Assembly (NCBI RefSeq): GCF_001458735.1
Contig: NZ_CZQA01000010.1
Location: 62,001-126,000 of the forward strand
Direction of reading: 5' to 3'
DNA length: 64,000 nucleotides
Source: Candidatus Nitrospira nitrosa
GTDB taxonomy: Bacteria; Nitrospirota; Nitrospiria; Nitrospirales; Nitrospiraceae
Shown here in pieces: positions 164-11,900 of this stretch (position 1 is the first letter of the stretch; each line of letters opens with the position of its first letter). Below the pieces are notes generated by a model that saw only the letters and a list, made by a program, of their open reading frames with translations, did no database searches and was not told the DNA's origin. Position numbers and translations under genes: made by a program.

Positions 164-1015
164 TCACCACGCCTTTGCGTAGTATCGCTTGAGCCACGCG
201 CAAAGCCCAGGCAACCCTGGAAAGAGTGTCCGTTCAGAGATGTTGTTCTGATCCAGCATCGCACGTATCTCTGGCTTGACGGCTGCAGCTATGACGATCC
301 GATGAACCAACGCTGCATGTTGTGCGCTATAGTCCGCGAGGAAACTATTCTGGGACCCGGTCGCGCTGTTCATGATAGTCAGCATCCCCGATTGATTGGC
401 AATCCGATCATCGAGGGACGGAGGTTCCCACAGTAACATGAGCCGTGTGCTAGGTTGCTGAGGTTCGTACGAGGCATCCAAAGCATCGAGGTCTCGAAAC
501 TGCGATTCGAGGAGCCGCGTATCGTAGACCCACGCGACACGATCAAGTGTTCGTGTTGATTGATGGTGTTCTCGGTTAATTGCTCTAAGCGCGCCGGCGT
601 GCAGACACCAAATCACGCCGTCCTCCAACTTTCTGGTTTCATCGCCACAGGCGAAATGCGCCGCCACAAACGGTGAAGCGCACCAGTCCAAGCACCTTGT
701 GGGAAGACCGTTGTGCTGAGCGACAGCCAGTACATACCACTCGGATTTGTCGTCGAACGTCCCGGCCTTCGCATACTTCCTAAAACTTCGAATGAGTGAG
801 CGCTCAACAGTCTTGCTATTGGAAGGAATGAATCCCGGTAATCTAACAATACTGGTTTCAAGAGGCCATTTGGCGCTGTCGGCGCCACGAAAGACGTACG
901 GCGACCGCAAGTGGCCACCTTCATCCTCCCGGACCGGAATGATCTCACGCGAGTGCAATTCGCCTACAAGTTCAGCCCATGAATTGACAATTGTCTCAGT
1001 ACCAGGAAGTCTCAT
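164..1015 (-). CDS. FRG-domain protein
   Basis: A 283-residue protein with an FRG domain: the signature FRGA, a following W-P-L-E-T-S and an arginine lie at about residues 43-57, and the C-D-W-C-A-S-P-F-V-A-A-H-F-A segment about residues 108-122 matches the family core. FRG domains have no settled biochemical function and are frequently found in accessory and defence-linked regions. The start is well supported by AGGAG six bases upstream of the ATG. No partner gene is adjacent within the window; the 163 bases beyond its 3' end hold no gene I can support. I assign the domain only, not a role. Confidence 0.8.
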   Translation of the reverse strand: MRLPGTETIVNSWAELVGELHSREIIPVREDEGGHLRSPYVFRGADSAKWPLETSIVRLPGFIPSNSKTVERSLIRSFRKYAKAGTFDDKSEWYVLAVAQHNGLPTRCLDWCASPFVAAHFACGDETRKLEDGVIWCLHAGALRAINREHHQSTRTLDRVAWVYDTRLLESQFRDLDALDASYEPQQPSTRLMLLWEPPSLDDRIANQSGMLTIMNSATGSQNSFLADYSAQHAALVHRIVIAAAVKPEIRAMLDQNNISERTLFPGLPGLCAWLKRYYAKAW

Positions 1016-3563: not shown

Positions 3564-4469
3564 ATGTTTCAGTTTTCTGATCAGCAAGACGACGGCGGGA
3601 AACACCCTCCATCGAATCCGAGCGTAGTCAGTAAAGCCTACCCCGGGCTGGTCTTAGTCCCACCCAGTGATCGGACGATTTTACGACGTCGGATTGTGCG
3701 AGGCGCACTTGTTCTTGTCGCCGTTATCTGGACCATCTGGACTTTTACAGCCCAGCCCCCGGCCTCCGACAACACCACACCCTGCCAATCCGAAGCCGGT
3801 CAATCAGGCCCGGGAAGTTCCGCGAACGACTGTAGCACAGCGGCATCAACCACGGACGTCGAAACGCATCCAAGCGAGTTGAGCCTGACACAATCCTCAT
3901 CGGTTGCAGCCCTGGTCGAAGCGTCACCGCTGCCAACTAGCTCTCAATCGGATCGGGAACCGTCTCGGACTCCGCCCATGGTGGAGCATCCGGCACCGGC
4001 GCATACTGCCCCGACCGAACCTCACATAGAACCACAGGTTAAAAACTCAGACCAGGAGAAATCAGCGGTCGCTCGTCCGCAGGAAAAGCCGGTCGTGAAT
4101 CAGGAGAGTGACACACACCTTGCCGAACAAGGCGACCCCTTTGCGCAGTATCGCCTCGGACGCCATTTTGCGAAGCAGGAGGGCCGACAGGCGCCAGAAT
4201 CCGTCAGTTGGTATAAGAAAGCGTTCGTCGGACTACATCGTCTCGCGGAGGCCGGAAATGGCCAAGCCATGTATGTTCTCGGCGTCATGTACGCCTATGG
4301 CCGTGGAGTCGAACGAGATATCAGCCAAGCACGACGTTGGTTGGCCCAGGCAGTGGAACACAAGATCGCCGCAGCCCAGCCGGTGCTTGCCAATCTACCG
4401 ATATCGCCGCGTGCCAATTCCCATCTTCACGCAGCCGAACAAGCAAAAGCCAGAAAACAGCAGAACTAA
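3564..4469 (+). CDS. Sel1-repeat membrane protein
   Basis: The open frame begins at 3549, but the ATG at 3564 follows GGAG at good spacing and is preferred. The protein has a cytoplasmic N-terminus, one membrane helix (V-L-V-A-V-I-W-T-I-W region, about residues 48-65), a long Ser/Thr/Pro-rich linker, then two Sel1-like repeats near the C-terminus (A-Q-Y-R-L-G-R-H-F-A and A-M-Y-V-L-G-V-M-Y-A-Y-G-R-G-V). Sel1 repeats mediate protein-protein contacts, so this is likely an envelope scaffold or adaptor. The last 319 bases recur at 6788-7106 as a damaged copy. Confidence 0.8.
   Translation: MFQFSDQQDDGGKHPPSNPSVVSKAYPGLVLVPPSDRTILRRRIVRGALVLVAVIWTIWTFTAQPPASDNTTPCQSEAGQSGPGSSANDCSTAASTTDVETHPSELSLTQSSSVAALVEASPLPTSSQSDREPSRTPPMVEHPAPAHTAPTEPHIEPQVKNSDQEKSAVARPQEKPVVNQESDTHLAEQGDPFAQYRLGRHFAKQEGRQAPESVSWYKKAFVGLHRLAEAGNGQAMYVLGVMYAYGRGVERDISQARRWLAQAVEHKIAAAQPVLANLPISPRANSHLHAAEQAKARKQQN
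4151..4469 (+). repeat. Direct repeat, copy A (3' end of the Sel1 gene)
   Basis: The final 319 bases of the Sel1 gene align without gaps to 6788-7106. About 23 differences were counted by hand, roughly 93% identity. The haem peroxidase gene lies between the two copies. Confidence 0.9.
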
Positions 4470-4792
4470 GCGCCGTTGCTCTCTCAACATCGGAACAATT
4501 TCTCACGGTAATGGCAGAGAACCATTACGCCTGGGCCTGCACACACATCAATGACCATCTCCATGCCAGATGTTGCACACGCAACGCCAGTCTGAATATC
4601 TTGCAACCCTCGGTCGTGAGGCACTGATCATGTTACTGGTAATTATTGGAGGATTCAGACTGCTGGTTGAACGGTGAGACTTCCGGTCGAACTACTGAGA
4701 CAGTGCTATTCTGAACCGAGCACACGAACAATAGCGGACAGAGGACATTGCCTATCACAGCGCAATGTCCTCTGCCACTACTATCCGTGAGC
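4470..4792. other. Intergenic, Sel1 gene to peroxidase
   Basis: A 323-base convergent spacer without a credible gene. Its only clear structure is the perfect 12-base inverted repeat at 4739-4774 just beyond the peroxidase stop. Confidence 0.6.
4739..4774 (-). terminator. Hairpin downstream of the haem peroxidase
   Basis: CAGAGGACATTG and CAATGTCCTCTG form a perfect 12-base stem around a 12-base loop, about 19 bases past the peroxidase stop. There is no U-tract on either side, so intrinsic termination is uncertain; it may instead protect the mRNA 3' end. Confidence 0.5.
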
Positions 4793-6391
4793 TTAGTTCA
4801 ACGGAGGCACTACCCCCGCAAATGTGAGCAAGTCGGTCATACGAAACTCACCCGGGGTCGCGGAAGGCAACACCGGCATCCAATTAGGACTCGACGCCAG
4901 ATAGGATGTTTCATCGGCTTTCAATAATCCGATAAACACCTCACCAACTATCTGACCTCCAACCGGTCCGAGGCGAAGACCATTTTCCATCACCTCCGCT
5001 TCTTTCATGATGTACAGCCACAGGGGCGTGTTCCGCTCCAACCCAAATGACGACAGCGAATCGAGCTGAGCCGGAGTCAACACAGGCAGGCCCATTCGTC
5101 TGGCGATTGCTTGCCCGGACGGAATACTGAAATTCACGTGGCGCATCAAGTTCCGAGATGCCAAGGATTGGACACCATCCCCAGGTAGGCCTGGAGCAGG
5201 CCCACGGAAGCCCGGCAGCAACATCACGACGCTTGAGAGCTTGCTATCGATCTTCTTGTTCGGCCTGAAGTTCCCATCACCGAAGTTGAAGAACGTCTGC
5301 CAATCGACAAAGCGTCGCGGTGCTCGCTTGCCACCTCGGAGGTCGTTGGGGTCGGGATCATTTGGGTCTTGGGCATCATCGAAGATAAAAGCAAAGAACG
5401 GACTATGCCCTTGGTCTGGCCGACCAAAATTCAACCGATAGCTTGGTCGAATCTGGGAATGGCCGAATCGATAGGCACCGACGGAAAACTCAATCGGGAT
5501 CTGTGGCCGATCATCATCGACATCATAGAATCGGACGCCACGCCGGAGAATATCATCAACGCGTGCCTGTCCTATCGTCAGCGGTAGAAATTCATGAACA
5601 ATGATCCACTGATAGTGCCAACGGACTTGCCGCCTAGCCTTCTTGAAAATCTCCTGAGCGGAATCCCCGGCATGAGCGGGATCAGTTTGCAGACGATCAG
5701 TTACCGCATTATGAAACTTGAGCATCGCCACATGCAGCTGTGACAAGATCACATTCTCGTCATTGCGTCGATCCCCCAACAGAGCGGTCATCGTCCCATG
5801 ATCGCGCGGGAGATCGAAGCGAACGGCTCCGTTTCGTGAGAACTCCTCTGAACCAGGAATTGCCTCGACTCGAAGCTTGATGAATCCGGAGCTCAGATCA
5901 TACAGCTCGGGAGATTGCTCCGGTCCACCTCCATACACACTATCCAGGTCAAATTTCGGGGTGCGAAAGTTGGTCGTTTTCTTGGGATTCGTCTTTTCGA
6001 GCAACGGAGAATTCGGATCAAACGTGAGATCATGATCTAGAAACTGCCCCACAAACGTCATGCCTGCAGTCATACTTGGGTTGTCCGGATTGTTCGGACT
6101 GAACACCGCCGGATTCGTAATCGACAGCACGGGATCGGTGAGGATATCTTGTGCATCGATAAGCCCATCTTTGGCCCCCAACCGCTTGACCAAATCACGA
6201 GCCTCGTCCGTCGGAGGCAAGCCAGGAGGGAGATCATGAAACATCCTGGTGAAAGACGTATCCTTTTTCTTTTCGTGATCATTCCCATGACCTCTTCCAT
6301 CATTATCAGCAAATGCGAGATGACTAACACTCACCCCACAGAAAAGTACTCCTGCCACGACGGCACGAAGCCGGTTCCGATACCTCAGCAT
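4793..6391 (-). CDS. Secreted animal-type haem peroxidase
   Basis: A protein of the animal haem peroxidase (peroxinectin/cyclooxygenase-like) family, about 532 residues. After a signal peptide (A-V-V-A-G-V-L-F-C-G-V ending A-F-A) the mature part carries F-V-G-Q-F-L-D-H-D-L-T-F-D, where the His of D-H-D fits the distal haem position. Further on come H-V-A-M-L-K-F-H-N-A-V-T-D and a W-I-I-V-H-E-F-L-P-L segment typical of the proximal region. The open frame runs 97 codons further upstream, but GGGAGGAAG directly before the double ATG at 6394/6391 fixes the start here. Likely periplasmic or exported, oxidising substrates with H2O2; the substrate is unknown. It sits between two copies of a Sel1 gene end. 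Confidence 0.85.
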   Translation of the reverse strand: MLRYRNRLRAVVAGVLFCGVSVSHLAFADNDGRGHGNDHEKKKDTSFTRMFHDLPPGLPPTDEARDLVKRLGAKDGLIDAQDILTDPVLSITNPAVFSPNNPDNPSMTAGMTFVGQFLDHDLTFDPNSPLLEKTNPKKTTNFRTPKFDLDSVYGGGPEQSPELYDLSSGFIKLRVEAIPGSEEFSRNGAVRFDLPRDHGTMTALLGDRRNDENVILSQLHVAMLKFHNAVTDRLQTDPAHAGDSAQEIFKKARRQVRWHYQWIIVHEFLPLTIGQARVDDILRRGVRFYDVDDDRPQIPIEFSVGAYRFGHSQIRPSYRLNFGRPDQGHSPFFAFIFDDAQDPNDPDPNDLRGGKRAPRRFVDWQTFFNFGDGNFRPNKKIDSKLSSVVMLLPGFRGPAPGLPGDGVQSLASRNLMRHVNFSIPSGQAIARRMGLPVLTPAQLDSLSSFGLERNTPLWLYIMKEAEVMENGLRLGPVGGQIVGEVFIGLLKADETSYLASSPNWMPVLPSATPGEFRMTDLLTFAGVVPPLN

Positions 6392-6787
6392 CATCTTCCT
6401 CCCGAAAATGTTGTGGGACCGCCCAAAAAGTCGAGCTGACCTGATCCCCACGGTCCGCCCGATGTCGAAGCCGGCTAAAGCAATACTCGTACCAGCTTGA
6501 ATTGCTGGCGTTTCACGCATTACTTTATAAATATATGGTATACGAATGAACAGAGCTGTATCCAATTTGTTCAAAGTTGTATCTGAATCGATACGCCTAT
6601 ACCCGTAAATCGTTGGCGAAGATACAGTAGTCGCGATGAAAATGGATAGCTGCCTAAAGATATTAGCCAGAATTACGCGCATTAAACGCGAATAAGTACG
6701 GGGCAGGAACGAACCATATTAAGGATTCATCGAGGAGTGATCGACACACCGATCTACTAACCGAATGGGGAAATACATCAAGCGGGA
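6392..6787. other. Region upstream of the peroxidase
   Basis: A 396-base, comparatively AT-rich stretch. The peroxidase frame stays open through most of it but shows no family-like sequence, so I treat it as non-coding leader. No other gene is supported. Confidence 0.5.
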
Positions 6788-7106
6788 TCACCTCGGACGG
6801 TATTTTGCGCAGCAGGAGGGCTGACAGACGCCAGAATCCATCAGTTGGTATAAGAAAGCGTTTGTCGGATTACATCTTCTCGCGGAGACCGGAAATGGCC
6901 AAGCCATGTATGTTCTCGGCGTCATGTACGCCTATGGACGTGGGGTCGAACAAGATATCAGCCAAGCACGACGCTGGTTGGCCCAGGCTGTGGAACACAA
7001 GATCGCCGCAGCCCAGCCGGTGCTTGCCAATCTACCGATATCGCCGCGTGCCAATTCCCATCTTCACGCAGCTGAACAAGCAAAACCTCGTAAGCAGCAG
7101 AACTGA
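6788..7106 (+). pseudogene. Broken copy of the Sel1 gene 3' end
   Basis: This matches 4151-4469 base for base in length. A CGA-to-TGA change shortly after the homology begins puts a stop in the frame, and there is no 5' part, promoter region or membrane segment. The frame after the stop is intact and still encodes the G-V-M-Y-A-Y-G-R-G-V Sel1 repeat and a closely related tail, so the copy is not very old. It is a gene relic rather than an expressed protein. Confidence 0.85.
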
Positions 7107-7200
7107 AGAAAATTGACGGTTGGAACTGGCACCCGCTTCTCTCGTTCCGCCCACGCGCCACCCTGAACCGAAGGCTTCGTAGATGACACCCGTTCTGCAC

Positions 7201-10200
7201 TTACGATCTCCTAGGAGGCAGGACCAATTCGAACACATAGATCCCCCGCACACCAACTGCGACAAACTGATTGATATGGGGAACCCAAGCAACTCCCCAT
7301 ATTCCACCATCAACCCGTAGCAGACTCATCAATCTGCCTGTTGCCAAATCCCAAACACGAATTCCGCGATCAGCCGAGCCTGAGACGAGCCACTGGCCCA
7401 TTGGATCGATCGCACAGCTCCAGACTCCATCACTGTGACCTTCCAACCTGCGCAGGCACTCCCCCGTACGCCAATCCCAAACCTTGAGCGTCCCATCGCC
7501 AAGCCCTGAGACGAGCCACTGGCCCGTCGGATCGATCGCACAGCTCCTGACCCCATCATCATGTCCCTCCAACCTGCGCAGGCACTCCCCCGTGCGTCGA
7601 TCCCAAATCCTGAGCGTCTGATCACTCGAACCCGAGACAATCCACTGGCCCGTCGGGTCGATCGCACAGCTCCTGACCCCGCCATCATGGCCCTCCAATT
7701 TACGCAGACACTCCCCCGTGCGTCGATCCCAAATCCTGAGCGTCTGATCACCCGAGCCCGAGACAATCCACTGGCCCGTCGGATCGATCGCACAGCTCCT
7801 GACCCCATCATCATGTCCCTCCAACCTGCGCAGGCACTCCCCCATGCGTCGATCCCAAACCCTGAGCGTCTGATCACCCGAGCCCGAGACAATCCACTGG
7901 CCTGTCGGATCGATCACACAGCTCGTAACCGGACCGCTGTGCCCCTCCAACGTGCGCAGACACTCCCCCGTGCGTCGATCCCAAATCCTGAGCGTCTGAT
8001 CACCCGAGCCCGAGACAATCCACTGGCCCGTCGGATCGATCGCACAGCTCGTAACCCAATCACCATGGCTTTCCAATGTGCGGGGGTACTCCCCCGTGCG
8101 TCGATCCCAAATCCTGAGCGTCTGATCACCCGAGCCCGAGACAATCCACTGGCCTGTCGGATCGATCACACAGCTCGTGACCGGACCGCTGTGCCCCTCC
8201 AACGTGCGCTGGCACTCCCCCGTACGCCGATCCCAAACCTTGACCGTCTGATCATCCGCTCCTGACACGATCCAGTGGCCCGTTAGATCGATCACACAGT
8301 TCCTGACCCAATCACTGTGGCCCTTCAATGTACGCAGGCACTCACCCGTATGCCGATCCCAAACCTTGACCGTCCCATCGCTCGAGCCCGACACAATCCA
8401 CTGGCCAGTCGGATCAATTGCGCAACTCGTGATCCAGGTACCACGACCTTCCAATGTGCGAAGACATTCCCCGGTTCGCCGATCCCAAATCCTGAGCGTC
8501 TGATCACCCGAGCCCGACACAATCCACTGGCCTGTCGGATCAATTGCGCAACTCGTGACCTCGTCGCTGTGGCCCTCCAACCTACGCAGACACCTCCCCG
8601 TACGGTGATCCCAAATCTTGACCGTCCCATCGCTCGAGCCCGACACAATCCACTGGCCTGTCGGATCAATTGCGCAACTCGTGACCTCAGCACTGTGGCC
8701 CTTCAATGTACGCAGGCAGTCCCCTGTATGGAGATCCCAAATCTTGACCATCCCATCGCTCGAGCCCGAGACAATCCACTGACCGGTCGGATCGATCGCG
8801 CAGCTCCTGACCTCACCACTGTGGCCCTTCAATGTACGCAGGCACTCACCCGTATGCCGATCCCAAACCTTGATCATCTGATCATCCGCTCCCGACACGA
8901 TCCACTGACCCGTCACATTGATCGCACAGCTCCTGACCCAATCACCGTGCCCCCCCAACGTGCGTACCAGTGCCGGATCGGGCTTGTCTGGTATCGGCCA
9001 GACCGCCTTGACGTATGGAAGGTGCATCGAGGACTCCAATTGCTGGGACTCGCCTTGCAGCATCGGCTCACCCTGCACACGGCTTAAGAGTGTCGTCAGT
9101 ACTCCTTCCAAATAAGGCTGATTAGTCACAAGATGAGCCGATTGCGACAACACTCGTTGCAGGCGCTGCAGCGCTTGGTCGTGCTCCGCACCATGCAAGG
9201 CGAATTGAATATCACCTTCCACTGTATTCGACCCCATGAGCCATATTTTCTTCCCCAGGTATCGCAGGTCTTTGGCGGCCATCGTCAATTCACTTCGCCG
9301 GTTCCCCTGGATCAGATGATAGGCCAGATATCTCCAGCCATAGCTGTCGCCTTCCGCAAGGTTCGACCACGACCAGTCCGATGTCTCACGTTGCGCGCAA
9401 GGCCCATAACTCTCCAAGAGTCGGCGATGCACTGACGCAGCATCCGGTGTCAGCAATCTCAAGAAGTCATGCTGCAAATCATGGAAGCTGATCCCAAAAC
9501 GACTACGTTCGTCCTTTCGCAGCAAAAGACTCTTTCTGGCAAACCGCGACAACAGTTTTTGCGACTGTGCAGCCGTGAGGCCTGCGGTCTCGTGCCAGAG
9601 CCGCTCAATGACCACATCCGGCACATGGGCATCTTCCGGAAAGATGACCAGTTCCAGATAACGCCCCCGATCCGCCTCCGAAAGGGCCTGCACGCTCAAT
9701 TTCATGGATTTAAAAATACTGCCATAGGGATGGTCCAGAAATTCCAGATCGCCCTCGGTGAGGGCAAGCAAGAGGGTGGCCCAGTCCATCCCTTCGTGAA
9801 TCTGCGCCCCAGCCAATGCGAGTGCCAACGGCACGCCTTGGCAACTGTCGGCCACCTGTACGGCTTCGGGAGGCAACTTAGTAGGATCAACCCCGCTCCA
9901 TTCGGCCAGTAGCTGCACCGCCGCCTGCTCGCTCAACACTCCGACCGACTCTTCCTTCGCGCCGACGGCGGTCAGAATCGTGGCATCCCTCGTCGTTATC
10001 AGGAGGCGGGATTTTGGACCGATCACGTCCAATGCCACGGCGTGCTCGGTCTGCCACACGTCATCCAGAATCAGTAGACAGGTCTTCTCTGCAAGATACC
10101 GCTGCAATTGTTGCTTACCCTGGCTCGCACTGGAGACCACTGGCGCCTGGTCACCCAGCGCTTTCAACCACTCGACTTGGCAGGCGATGAGATCCGGTTC

Positions 10201-11025
10201 CTGCCCAAGCGTGAACCAGTAGATGCCGTCCGGAAACGCCCGTTGCACCTCTTCATCATTAGTCAAGGCAATGGCCAACACGGTCTTCCCTATCCCGCCC
10301 TGTCCGTGAACCCCGATCTTGGTCGTCTCCCCCGTGAGCCCGATGGCCCCATGGCGTCCCTGTACGAGCGACAACTTCAACCGATTCAACTCCTCCGGCC
10401 GATCCTGAAAATGGGGGCGCTGGGACGGGACGCCATAGATCACAGCGCGCGCGGCCTGTGGCCCCAGGCTCACAGCAACAGGCTGAACGACGCGCTGGGC
10501 TGCCGGAGACGGACTCGGCGGAATGACGACATCACTCTCTGGAGCCGCACAGGACACACCATCAGGCTGGACTCCATGAAACACCTCGACCAACTGTTGG
10601 GCGATGGTCACCAGCGCCGCATGCTGCTGAGGCTCCGGAAGCAGGTCGAGGGCCTCATGCGGCGGGCGAGCCCATTGGTATTTATCCAGCCCCGTGGGAG
10701 CCACCACACTCGAACTGAGTGGCACACAAAAGAGACGGGCATGGCCATTCTCACTGGCCATTTCCAACGGAGGGACCTCCTGGTCCATGATGAAATCCGA
10801 CGCTAAGAAATGAGGACTCACGAGCAGCAAGCCAACTTTGGCTCGCGGTAAAGCCTGGTCGATTTCTCGCCTCCACAGATCTCCGACCTGAATGTAGGGA
10901 TCGGCCCATACCGCCAACCGCCCTTTGCGTTGATAAGGCTTGAGGAAGATAAACAGTTTTTCCAACCAGGCTTTGTCCTGGTGGCTATAGCTGACATAGA
11001 TGAGATCGCGCACGTCAGGGTTCAT
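7201..11025 (-). CDS. TIR / NB-ARC / WD40 NLR-like protein
   Basis: A 1274-residue STAND-type protein. Residues 7-130 form a TIR-like domain (L-I-Y-V-S-Y-S-H-Q-D; W-A-D; the S-D-F-I-M-D-Q-E segment places a candidate catalytic Glu at 83). An NB-ARC ATPase follows, with P-loop GQGGIGKT at 241-248, Walker B LLILDDVW at 317-324, LLITTRD at 341-347 and GVPLALA at 398-404. A winged-helix/helical linker leads to thirteen 42-residue WD40 repeats (689-1234) and a degenerate fourteenth (1235-1274), enough for two seven-bladed propellers. By analogy with TIR-STAND proteins, the WD40 part would sense a ligand, NB-ARC would drive oligomerisation, and TIR might degrade NAD+ or signal. Many relatives are antiviral, but that role is inferred. 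No signal peptide; probably monocistronic. The start lacks a strong ribosome site. Confidence 0.92.
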   Translation of the reverse strand: MNPDVRDLIYVSYSHQDKAWLEKLFIFLKPYQRKGRLAVWADPYIQVGDLWRREIDQALPRAKVGLLLVSPHFLASDFIMDQEVPPLEMASENGHARLFCVPLSSSVVAPTGLDKYQWARPPHEALDLLPEPQQHAALVTIAQQLVEVFHGVQPDGVSCAAPESDVVIPPSPSPAAQRVVQPVAVSLGPQAARAVIYGVPSQRPHFQDRPEELNRLKLSLVQGRHGAIGLTGETTKIGVHGQGGIGKTVLAIALTNDEEVQRAFPDGIYWFTLGQEPDLIACQVEWLKALGDQAPVVSSASQGKQQLQRYLAEKTCLLILDDVWQTEHAVALDVIGPKSRLLITTRDATILTAVGAKEESVGVLSEQAAVQLLAEWSGVDPTKLPPEAVQVADSCQGVPLALALAGAQIHEGMDWATLLLALTEGDLEFLDHPYGSIFKSMKLSVQALSEADRGRYLELVIFPEDAHVPDVVIERLWHETAGLTAAQSQKLLSRFARKSLLLRKDERSRFGISFHDLQHDFLRLLTPDAASVHRRLLESYGPCAQRETSDWSWSNLAEGDSYGWRYLAYHLIQGNRRSELTMAAKDLRYLGKKIWLMGSNTVEGDIQFALHGAEHDQALQRLQRVLSQSAHLVTNQPYLEGVLTTLLSRVQGEPMLQGESQQLESSMHLPYVKAVWPIPDKPDPALVRTLGGHGDWVRSCAINVTGQWIVSGADDQMIKVWDRHTGECLRTLKGHSGEVRSCAIDPTGQWIVSGSSDGMVKIWDLHTGDCLRTLKGHSAEVTSCAIDPTGQWIVSGSSDGTVKIWDHRTGRCLRRLEGHSDEVTSCAIDPTGQWIVSGSGDQTLRIWDRRTGECLRTLEGRGTWITSCAIDPTGQWIVSGSSDGTVKVWDRHTGECLRTLKGHSDWVRNCVIDLTGHWIVSGADDQTVKVWDRRTGECQRTLEGHSGPVTSCVIDPTGQWIVSGSGDQTLRIWDRRTGEYPRTLESHGDWVTSCAIDPTGQWIVSGSGDQTLRIWDRRTGECLRTLEGHSGPVTSCVIDPTGQWIVSGSGDQTLRVWDRRMGECLRRLEGHDDGVRSCAIDPTGQWIVSGSGDQTLRIWDRRTGECLRKLEGHDGGVRSCAIDPTGQWIVSGSSDQTLRIWDRRTGECLRRLEGHDDGVRSCAIDPTGQWLVSGLGDGTLKVWDWRTGECLRRLEGHSDGVWSCAIDPMGQWLVSGSADRGIRVWDLATGRLMSLLRVDGGIWGVAWVPHINQFVAVGVRGIYVFELVLPPRRS
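7324..8961 (-). repeat. Thirteen tandem 126-bp WD40-coding repeats
   Basis: Thirteen head-to-tail units of exactly 126 bases (42 codons) with no length variation. Each encodes a variant of G-H-x6-C-A-I-D-P-T-G-Q-W-I-V-S-G-S, D-Q-T-L-R-I-W-D and R-T-G-E-C-L-R. Long stretches are identical at DNA level between units, so the array is prone to unequal recombination and to assembly error. Confidence 0.9.
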
Positions 11026-11171
11026 AGACCATTTTGTCGGATACCAACACGAATGCGAAGCTGTGCTGGAGAGTACCGCGAGAGCACACGATTATCAAAC
11101 GCGAGATGGGGAACCTTTCGAAAATCTGCATTGCGATCACAAATGCGATATCATAAGATGCTCCCTCTGCC

Positions 11172-11900
11172 ATGAACGCCGCCACCCGCATCAAAACCAA
11201 AACGCCGAGTCCGTATAAGTTGGTTCACATTGAAACGGATACCCACGACACCAAGACATTCCGGTTTGATCTTCCGGACAACGCGACCTTGGACATGTTG
11301 CCCGGTGACTTTCTCTACGTCCACGCAACGATCAACGGCAAGCTCATCAAGCGGGCCTACACACCGTCCTCGCTGCCCGGCACAACGGGATCGTTCGACC
11401 TGACAGTCAAGCGATATGACACCGGTTCCATTTCAAAGTACTTGCACGATCAGAAGATCGGAGAGACCGTGCTGATGAGTGGGCCGAATACCGGTGGGCA
11501 TTGGGTCGATGGAATGGCCACGCGTGTCGGGTTCGTGGCAGGAGGCACCGGGATTACCCCGATGATCTCCATCATTCGTTGGATCCTCATCAACCAGCTT
11601 GATGCGGAACTGTATCTACTTTTCGCGAACAAGACAGAATCAGACATCATTTTCCGACAGGAATGGGATCGAAATATCCGAGAGCATCACAACTTTCATT
11701 GTCATCATGTTCTGGAAGAGCCTCCCCCAGGATGGTTGGATAGCACAGGCCGAATCACCCCTGATCTCCTGCGGCAGCACCTTCCCCCTCCGGGTGCCGA
11801 CAGTTGCGTGTTCGTCTGCGGCCCCCCTGCCATGGTGGACTCAGTGGAAACGACCCTCAAGGAACTGGGTTATCCTGAACAGGCCATCATCCTCCCGTAA
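11172..11900 (+). CDS. FAD/NAD(P)-binding oxidoreductase (ferredoxin reductase-like)
   Basis: A 242-residue single-module flavoprotein of the ferredoxin-NADP+ reductase / cytochrome b5 reductase type. R-A-Y-T-P-S-S (about residues 58-64) is the FAD-binding signature, G-G-T-G-I-T-P (about 119-125) binds the NAD(P) pyrophosphate, and C-G-P-P-A-M near the C-terminus closes the nicotinamide site. There is no 2Fe-2S domain, so it must pass electrons to a separate acceptor. It is transcribed divergently from the TIR/NB-ARC gene with about 146 bases between them. The physiological partner is not apparent from neighbours. Confidence 0.87.
   Translation: MNAATRIKTKTPSPYKLVHIETDTHDTKTFRFDLPDNATLDMLPGDFLYVHATINGKLIKRAYTPSSLPGTTGSFDLTVKRYDTGSISKYLHDQKIGETVLMSGPNTGGHWVDGMATRVGFVAGGTGITPMISIIRWILINQLDAELYLLFANKTESDIIFRQEWDRNIREHHNFHCHHVLEEPPPGWLDSTGRITPDLLRQHLPPPGADSCVFVCGPPAMVDSVETTLKELGYPEQAIILP

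What the first reader, a model, noticed from the sequence alone, without database searches (positions are those of the whole stretch)
7201..11025. Bacterial NLR-like protein with TIR, NB-ARC and 14 WD40 blades
The protein has the TIR / NB-ARC / repeat-sensor order of plant immune receptors, with a WD40 sensor rather than LRRs. Key residues (P-loop, Walker B, GVPLALA, candidate TIR Glu 83) are intact. TIR-STAND proteins include anti-phage effectors that deplete NAD+, so an immune role is plausible.
Basis: partly seen in the sequence, partly recalled or inferred. Interest (0 to 1): 0.7.

Follow-up and report, generated by a model that had tools for sequence, protein, structure and literature searches.

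The report
Bacterial Apaf-1-like receptor with TIR head
A nitrite-oxidising-type bacterium carries a one-gene alarm protein built like the human cell-death trigger Apaf-1, with an NAD-destroying type of head and a repeat sensor that varies mainly at the places where such sensors touch their targets, so it looks like a fast-changing immune receptor of a kind already known from other bacteria.

Summary
Window 7201-11025 (-) is one intact 1274-residue gene: TIR (1-155), NB-ARC plus APAF-1-type helical domain (196-660), then 13 near-regular 42-residue WD40 units and a divergent 14th (687-1274). The genome is a Nitrospira (a 73% orthologue lies in Nitrospira sp. ACE_NIT9). The nearest solved relative of the central part is human Apaf-1 (E 2.7e-31), ahead of plant NLRs; of the propeller, the Nostoc 14-blade double propeller WRAP (2YMU). 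Glu83 aligns with the glutamate of NADase TIRs and is kept in 62 of 62 aligned TIRs. New here: variation among the blades concentrates at the top-face sites that are under positive selection in the fungal receptors HET-D/HET-E (7 sites, P 2e-5; 4 strongest sites, P 3e-4); the same holds in an independent Nitrospirota relative, but not in a relative with diverged blades. The gene is sporadic (3 of 79 genomes of the genus) in a variable locus. Best reading: an Apaf-1-like, ligand-triggered NADase that kills or stalls infected cells, with a diversifying WD40 clamp as sensor. Activity and ligand are untested. Recently amplified WD40 propellers on STAND proteins are already described in bacteria: new member of a known kind.

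The parts
7201..11025 (-). whole TIR-NOD-WD40 gene, 1274 aa
10561..11025 (-). TIR domain, residues 1-155
   Evidence: TIR_2 44.5 bits; AlphaFold model pLDDT 89 on 62 sequences; TIR NADase structures
10777..10779 (-). codon of Glu83, candidate catalytic glutamate
   Evidence: invariant in 62 of 62 aligned TIRs; aligned with the Glu of BtpA, PdTIR and AbTir
9688..10329 (-). NB-ARC, residues 233-446
   Evidence: 95.5 bits
10282..10314 (-). P-loop, residues 238-248
9460..9666 (-). APAF-1-like winged-helix domain, residues 454-522, with FHD in the MHD place
   Evidence: 26.8 bits against a cut-off of 27; alignment to Apaf-1 LHD
9106..9432 (-). APAF-1 helical domain (HD2), residues 532-640
   Evidence: PF17908 36.2 bits, cut-off 22.8
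7330..8967 (-). 13 WD40 units of 42 aa, residues 687-1232; hypervariable unit positions 8, 9, 10, 12, 28, 30, 37
7204..7329 (-). divergent 14th (closing) unit, residues 1233-1274
6787..7104 (+). copy of the 3' end of the Sel1-repeat gene beside the receptor gene
   Evidence: 94% to the resident Sel1 gene; 93.7% to Sel1 of G032
6778..11188 (.). stretch absent from the closest relative G032, whose Sel1-peroxidase-reductase order runs through
   Evidence: collinear at 96% up to 6777 and again from 11189

Best explanation
A single-gene immune receptor that works like Apaf-1 with an NADase head. At rest (inferred) the double WD40 propeller folds back on an ADP-loaded NB-ARC core. A foreign or stress-borne protein is gripped between the two propellers through the variable top-face residues; ADP is exchanged for ATP, the protomers form a ring, and the clustered TIR domains cleave NAD+, stopping or killing the cell before the invader spreads. 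The sensor diversifies because blades are duplicated and exchanged within the array while the framework is conserved and the contact sites change. Shown here: domain order, intact motifs, Apaf-1 colinearity, repeat homogeneity, the position of the variable sites, sporadic occurrence. Inferred: autoinhibition, ring assembly, NAD+ cleavage, invader sensing.
For: Apaf-1 colinearity over NBD-WHD-HD2 and APAF1_C. TIR model matches NADase TIRs; Glu83 invariant in 62 of 62. Propeller: best sequence and structure hit is the 14-blade double propeller 2YMU. Variable sites: entropy 1.52 at the 7 sites used for HET-D/E against 0.49 elsewhere, P 5e-6 to 2e-5; the four positively selected fungal codons (PMC1805685, passages) map to unit positions 10, 12, 28, 30, P 3e-4; three of them are the top-face binding sites R1-2, R1, D-1 (PMC3419727, passages). 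pN/pS 0.87 at the 7 sites against 0.25 elsewhere at equal pS (0.443 and 0.438). The same in the G055 relative, P 3e-4 for four sites, 9 of 9 distinct combinations. Sporadic: 3 of 79 genomes of the genus, absent from the closest relative at the same locus, a decayed remnant in G055.
Against: No defence-system model fits the whole protein; the best TIR hit in PADLOC is a partial ThsB match of 39.5 bits. The neighbours are haem-synthesis, peroxidase and reductase genes, not a clear defence island. pN/pS at the variable sites does not exceed 1, so relaxed constraint is not excluded. In the G004 and G018 orthologues the arrays are short (2 and 4 canonical units) and one is partly out of frame, which would not close two propellers unless the assemblies are collapsed. 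No match in 50,697 phage records says nothing on the trigger.
Confidence: 0.6

Rival explanations
1. A self/non-self or contact receptor, as HET-E is in fungi: the propeller senses a polymorphic protein of related cells rather than a phage, and the TIR kills on mismatch.
For: Same variable sites as HET-D/HET-E, which recognise alleles of HET-C.
Against: The own genome holds only one such array, not a family exchanging repeats; no polymorphic partner gene found nearby.
Confidence: 0.12
2. A STAND regulator or signalling enzyme: the TIR makes a signal or serves as a scaffold, and the protein controls a physiological switch, not cell death.
For: The nearest NCBIfam hits are partial matches to an FxSxx-COOH TPR protein and, for the G055 relative, also to the regulator AfsR.
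Against: Glu83 is kept in all 62 aligned TIRs; sporadic presence and decay are unlike a core regulator.
Confidence: 0.13
3. A recently amplified, short-lived propeller without a settled use; blade turnover is neutral and the gene is on its way to loss.
For: Remnant in G055, frame-shifted blades in G018; authors of PMC9218822 note many disrupted amplified propellers (passages).
Against: In the window copy all 13 units are in frame and the framework is under purifying selection, pN/pS 0.25; the core is kept at 73% with all motifs in G004.
Confidence: 0.12

Closest known systems
Apaf-1 (human apoptosome protein)
   Same: NB-ARC, winged helix and HD2 in the same order, FHD/LHD motif, C-terminal WD40 propellers
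   Different: TIR instead of CARD; bacterial; blades nearly alike; 14 blades, against 15 in Apaf-1 (the 15 is recalled)
WRAP protein Npun_R6612 of Nostoc punctiforme (PDB 2YMU)
   Same: STAND protein with 14 amplified WD40 blades in two 7-blade propellers, proposed role in prokaryotic innate immunity (PMC9218822, PMC6805158, passages); best propeller hit here
   Different: In Nostoc the TIR sits on a separate STAND protein coupled in transcription; its blades carry no synonymous changes, whereas here pS is about 0.44
HET-D/HET-E (HNWD) receptors of Podospora
   Same: 42-aa WD40 units of high internal identity, double-propeller clamp proposed, variation at the same unit positions
   Different: NACHT and HET domains, fungal; mean unit identity 72% here against over 80%; no multi-gene family here
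TIR-NLR system of P4-like satellites
   Same: TIR plus NLR by name, protects E. coli from phages (PMC9122126, passages)
   Different: Not compared in sequence here; relation untested
Swarozyc / TEP1 DUF4062 NADases
   Same: In the human relatives a TIR-like domain stands in the place of the Apaf-1 CARD next to a STAND NTPase and WD40 repeats, and TEP1 is an NADase (PMC13174449, passages)
   Different: DUF4062 and NACHT, not TIR_2 and NB-ARC

Membership tests
Apaf-1-like AP-ATPases (NB-ARC STAND) | NB-ARC with intact P-loop, Walker B, TTR and MHD-type motif | tested here: met
   95.5 bits over cut-off; motifs
Apaf-1-like AP-ATPases (NB-ARC STAND) | APAF-1 helical domain (HD2) | tested here: met
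   PF17908 36.2 bits, cut-off 22.8
Apaf-1-like AP-ATPases (NB-ARC STAND) | APAF-1-like winged helix | tested here: inconclusive
   26.8 bits against a cut-off of 27
Apaf-1 proper | N-terminal CARD | tested here: not met
   TIR_2 occupies the N terminus
TIR NADases | TIR fold | tested here: met
   Z 15.7 (2.2 A over 134) to RUN1 6o0w, 14.2 (2.6 A over 128) to AbTir 7uxu
TIR NADases | catalytic glutamate | tested here: met
   Glu83 in 62 of 62, aligned with a Glu of AbTir; that this Glu is catalytic in AbTir is recalled
TIR NADases | NAD+ hydrolysis | not testable with these tools
   needs protein
Highly-Repetitive WD40 proteins (Hu 2017) | six of eight contiguous repeats all at least 0.7 identical to each other | tested here: met
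   0.81; definition read
Fungal HNWD receptors | variation concentrated at the positively selected unit positions | tested here: met
   P 3e-4 for four sites, 2e-5 for seven
Fungal HNWD receptors | NACHT domain and a gene family sharing repeats | tested here: not met
   NB-ARC instead; one array in the genome
Plant TIR-NB-LRR receptors | C-terminal LRR | tested here: not met
   the C terminus is filled by WD40 units
DGR-diversified sensors | diversity-generating reverse transcriptase with the target | tested here: not met
   two RTs in the genome, on other contigs: Drt5 over cut-off and a Drt4-like one below it
Thoeris ThsB | full-length ThsB match with a ThsA partner | tested here: not met
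   only residues 9-86 match, 39.5 bits; no such partner among the six neighbours scanned

The most novel reading that the evidence does not exclude
A bacterial counterpart of the fungal HET-D/E recognition repertoire: a TIR-armed, Apaf-1-type NADase whose two-propeller clamp is a hypervariable antigen sensor, in which duplication and exchange of blades together with change at four top-face residues per blade creates new specificities, reached independently of fungi and without a diversity-generating retroelement.
Probability: 0.35. Interest if true: 0.75.

Novelty: new member of a known kind. Interest (0 to 1): 0.5.

Why it matters
What the recently amplified WD40 propellers of bacterial STAND proteins recognise is open. 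This gene offers a concrete, testable case: the four contact residues per blade are predicted (the 13 units carry 11 distinct combinations), and the expected effector activity, NAD+ cleavage, is assayable. It would also link the apoptosome, bacterial antiphage NLRs and fungal allorecognition through one sensor design. That highly repetitive WD40 proteins, prokaryotic ones among them, vary at hotspot sites was already noted in general (PMC5587647, passages), which limits the novelty.

Tried and rejected
Diversity-generating retroelement as source of the variation: rejected, the genome's two reverse transcriptases are Drt5 and Drt4-like. Recent import from a distant genome: not supported, GC3 0.66 and codon adaptation 0.75 are in the range of the window's other genes. 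Carriage by phage: no tblastn match in 50,697 phage records. Plasmid relatives: 86 of 72,556 records, all under 60% identical. Blade-number evolution between orthologues (14 against 3 and 5): seen but not used as evidence, since G004 has about 410 contigs and the authors of PMC12222747 report that such 126-bp WD40 arrays are rebuilt correctly from long reads but not from Illumina assemblies (abstract and passages). A genome-contig scan with the core alignment used TIR motifs only, so its 80 loci are TIR relatives: by blastp 1 of 80 (L073, the G004 gene again) had the NB-ARC and WD40 parts; it says little on the spread of the architecture. Nitrospirota sample: 10 of 395 genomes had the NOD; of these 10, six show TIR, NB-ARC and WD40 together (G000, G018, G146, G341, G055, G215), G045 has no TIR_2 match in the first 164 residues of its frame, G012 lacks WD40, G048 lacks TIR, G329 is short (for G055 the Pfam list was cut at 25 rows, so NB-ARC there rests; for G018 the WD40 part rests on my reading). 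The WD40 model was folded from a single sequence (pLDDT 70.6, pTM 0.52): it supports the blade count, not the arrangement of the two propellers. Variable-site test: the unit register to the fungal numbering was first set from recalled HET-E landmarks, then checked against PMC1805685, whose codon pairs 7/9 and 25/27 flank conserved codons 8 and 26; their spacing of 18 equals V11 to D29 here. Of 42 possible registers it ranks first; if one counts all 42 as tried, the 7-site P is at most about 8e-4. Diverged-blade controls: G045 no signal (P 0.68 for seven sites), G215 weak (P 0.03 for seven sites, 0.15 for four); G146, G341 and the genome's own second WD40 protein gave too few ungapped units. 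The literature searches listed no paper on a Nitrospira TIR-NB-ARC-WD40 protein; I did not read all listed papers, and I did not see Dunin-Horkawicz 2014 itself, only its citation in PMC9218822 and PMC6805158.
Full report
The gene. Window 7201-11025 on the minus strand is one open frame of 1274 codons. Pfam over curated cut-offs: TIR_2, NB-ARC, APAF1_C and WD40; the APAF-1-like winged helix scores 26.8 against a cut-off of 27. The window lies in a 4.42-Mb genome of 15 contigs.

What the parts are. The TIR domain, modelled on 62 sequences (pLDDT 89), matches TIR structures that bind or cleave NAD: RUN1 with NADP+ (Z 15.7, 2.2 A over 134 residues), AbTir with 3AD (Z 14.2, 2.6 A over 128), and BtpA and AbTir by Foldseek. 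Glu83 aligns with a glutamate of AbTir, BtpA and PdTIR (that this is the catalytic residue is recalled) and is invariant in all 62 aligned TIRs. The central part matches human Apaf-1 142-565 from NB-ARC to HD2 at E 2.7e-31, then plant NLRs at 3.7e-21 and worse. The propeller region matches best the Nostoc double propeller 2YMU by sequence (E 1.2e-152) and by fold.

The repeats. The 13 regular units are on average 72% identical in protein and 78% in DNA, and meet the published definition of Highly-Repetitive WD40 proteins (0.81 against 0.7). Neighbouring units are more alike than distant ones (0.82 at distance 1, 0.66 at distance 12), as expected from tandem duplication or exchange. Synonymous divergence among units (pS about 0.44) shows that the array is not brand-new, unlike WRAP.

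Where they vary. In the fungal receptors HET-D/HET-E four codons per WD40 unit are under strong positive selection, in pairs around two conserved codons, and lie on the binding face (PMC1805685, passages); a later paper uses seven positions (PMC12222747, passages). Carried over by landmarks, these are unit positions 10, 12, 28, 30 (four) and 8, 9, 10, 12, 28, 30, 37 (seven). In the window array the mean entropy is 1.52 bits at the seven and 0.49 elsewhere (permutation P 5e-6 in 200,000; 2e-5 in 50,000, also when only the 29 variable columns are used), and the register ranks first of 42. The four strongest give P 3e-4. The thirteen units carry 11 distinct combinations at the four sites. pN/pS is 0.87 at the seven sites and 0.25 elsewhere, with equal pS. 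Positions 10, 12 and 28 are R1-2, R1 and D-1, the top-face residues most used for binding by WD40 proteins (PMC3419727, passages). An independent TIR-NB-ARC-WD40 protein of another family of the order (G055, L027) shows the same (four sites P 3e-4, seven sites P 8e-4, 9 of 9 distinct combinations), while G045, whose blades have diverged to 41% identity, shows nothing (P 0.77 and 0.68) and G215 little (0.15 and 0.03). In the near-identical blades of the G018 orthologue the changed columns include codons 9, 10, 28 and 30, along with codons 2, 11, 13, 31 and the last four, and in WRAP the residue that differs between blades in the alignment is the one after the conserved V (W, R or N), position 12 here. 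pN/pS below 1 means that relaxed constraint is not excluded.

The locus. The gene lies between a Sel1-repeat gene with a peroxidase and a reductase gene next to the haem genes. The closest relative by this locus, G032 (reductase 95% identical), has the same order without the receptor gene: the two are collinear up to window 6777 and again from 11189. G034 has Sel1 and reductase side by side; other Nitrospira carry other genes there. G004 has the receptor at this place with a different neighbour; G018 has it elsewhere; G055 has a decayed remnant. In the genus 3 of 79 genomes hold the gene over its whole core. Codon usage is native. This is the pattern of an accessory gene that comes and goes; it is not a classical defence island, though an FRG-domain gene matching a candidate defence family lies 6 kb away.

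How it most likely works. By analogy with Apaf-1, described in PMC13174449 (passages) as propellers folded on the ATPase until a ligand binds, followed by nucleotide exchange and a heptameric ring, I infer ligand-triggered assembly that brings TIR domains together to cleave NAD+. A TIR-NLR system does protect E. coli from phages (PMC9122126, passages). The trigger is unknown. Confidence 0.6 for the immune NADase reading as a whole.

What is known and what is new. STAND proteins with recently amplified WD40 propellers, linked to TIR and to prokaryotic immunity, are published (PMC9218822, passages), as is the general remark that highly repetitive WD40 proteins vary at hotspot sites (PMC5587647, passages). 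This gene is a member of that kind, in Nitrospira, with TIR, NOD and sensor in one chain. The added result is the site-by-site agreement with the fungal receptors under positive selection, seen in two separate bacterial arrays and absent from a diverged control.

Noticed in passing
window 6787-7104 and 4145-4444; L022 5492-5665: A copy of the 3' end of the Sel1 gene (94% identical) sits beside the receptor gene; G004 too has a Sel1-tail copy beside its receptor gene, but with a PD40-like gene (by eye) where the window has a peroxidase.
   Followed up: partly
window 4470-11171 and L064-L069: The stretch between Sel1 and the reductase gene holds different cargo in different Nitrospira (peroxidase, PD40-like gene, an ORF of about 1250 codons, a multi-gene block): an exchange hotspot.
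   Followed up: partly
window 164-1015 (-): FRG-domain gene matching the PADLOC candidate family PDC-S15 (154 bits).
   Followed up: no
G000:C8:295765-296199 and G000:C12:112047-112505 (L165, L166): Antiviral reverse transcriptase Drt5 (over the NCBIfam cut-off) and a Drt4-like one (below it) in the same genome; Drt5 lies about 9 kb from a second WD40 gene.
   Followed up: no
G000:C11:185560-188016 (L002, L168): A second TIR-NTPase protein in a frame of 994 codons, with a weak NB-ARC match and a TPR-like C terminus as read by eye.
   Followed up: no
L025 9318-10082 and L027: G055 holds a decayed remnant of the receptor gene and, 1.2 Mb away, an intact TIR-NB-ARC-WD40 relative with its own amplified array.
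   Followed up: partly
L187 4351-9459: Acaryochloris plasmid with neighbouring genes for a CHAT protein, an NB-ARC protein and a TIR protein, the NB-ARC region 35% identical to the window's.
   Followed up: no
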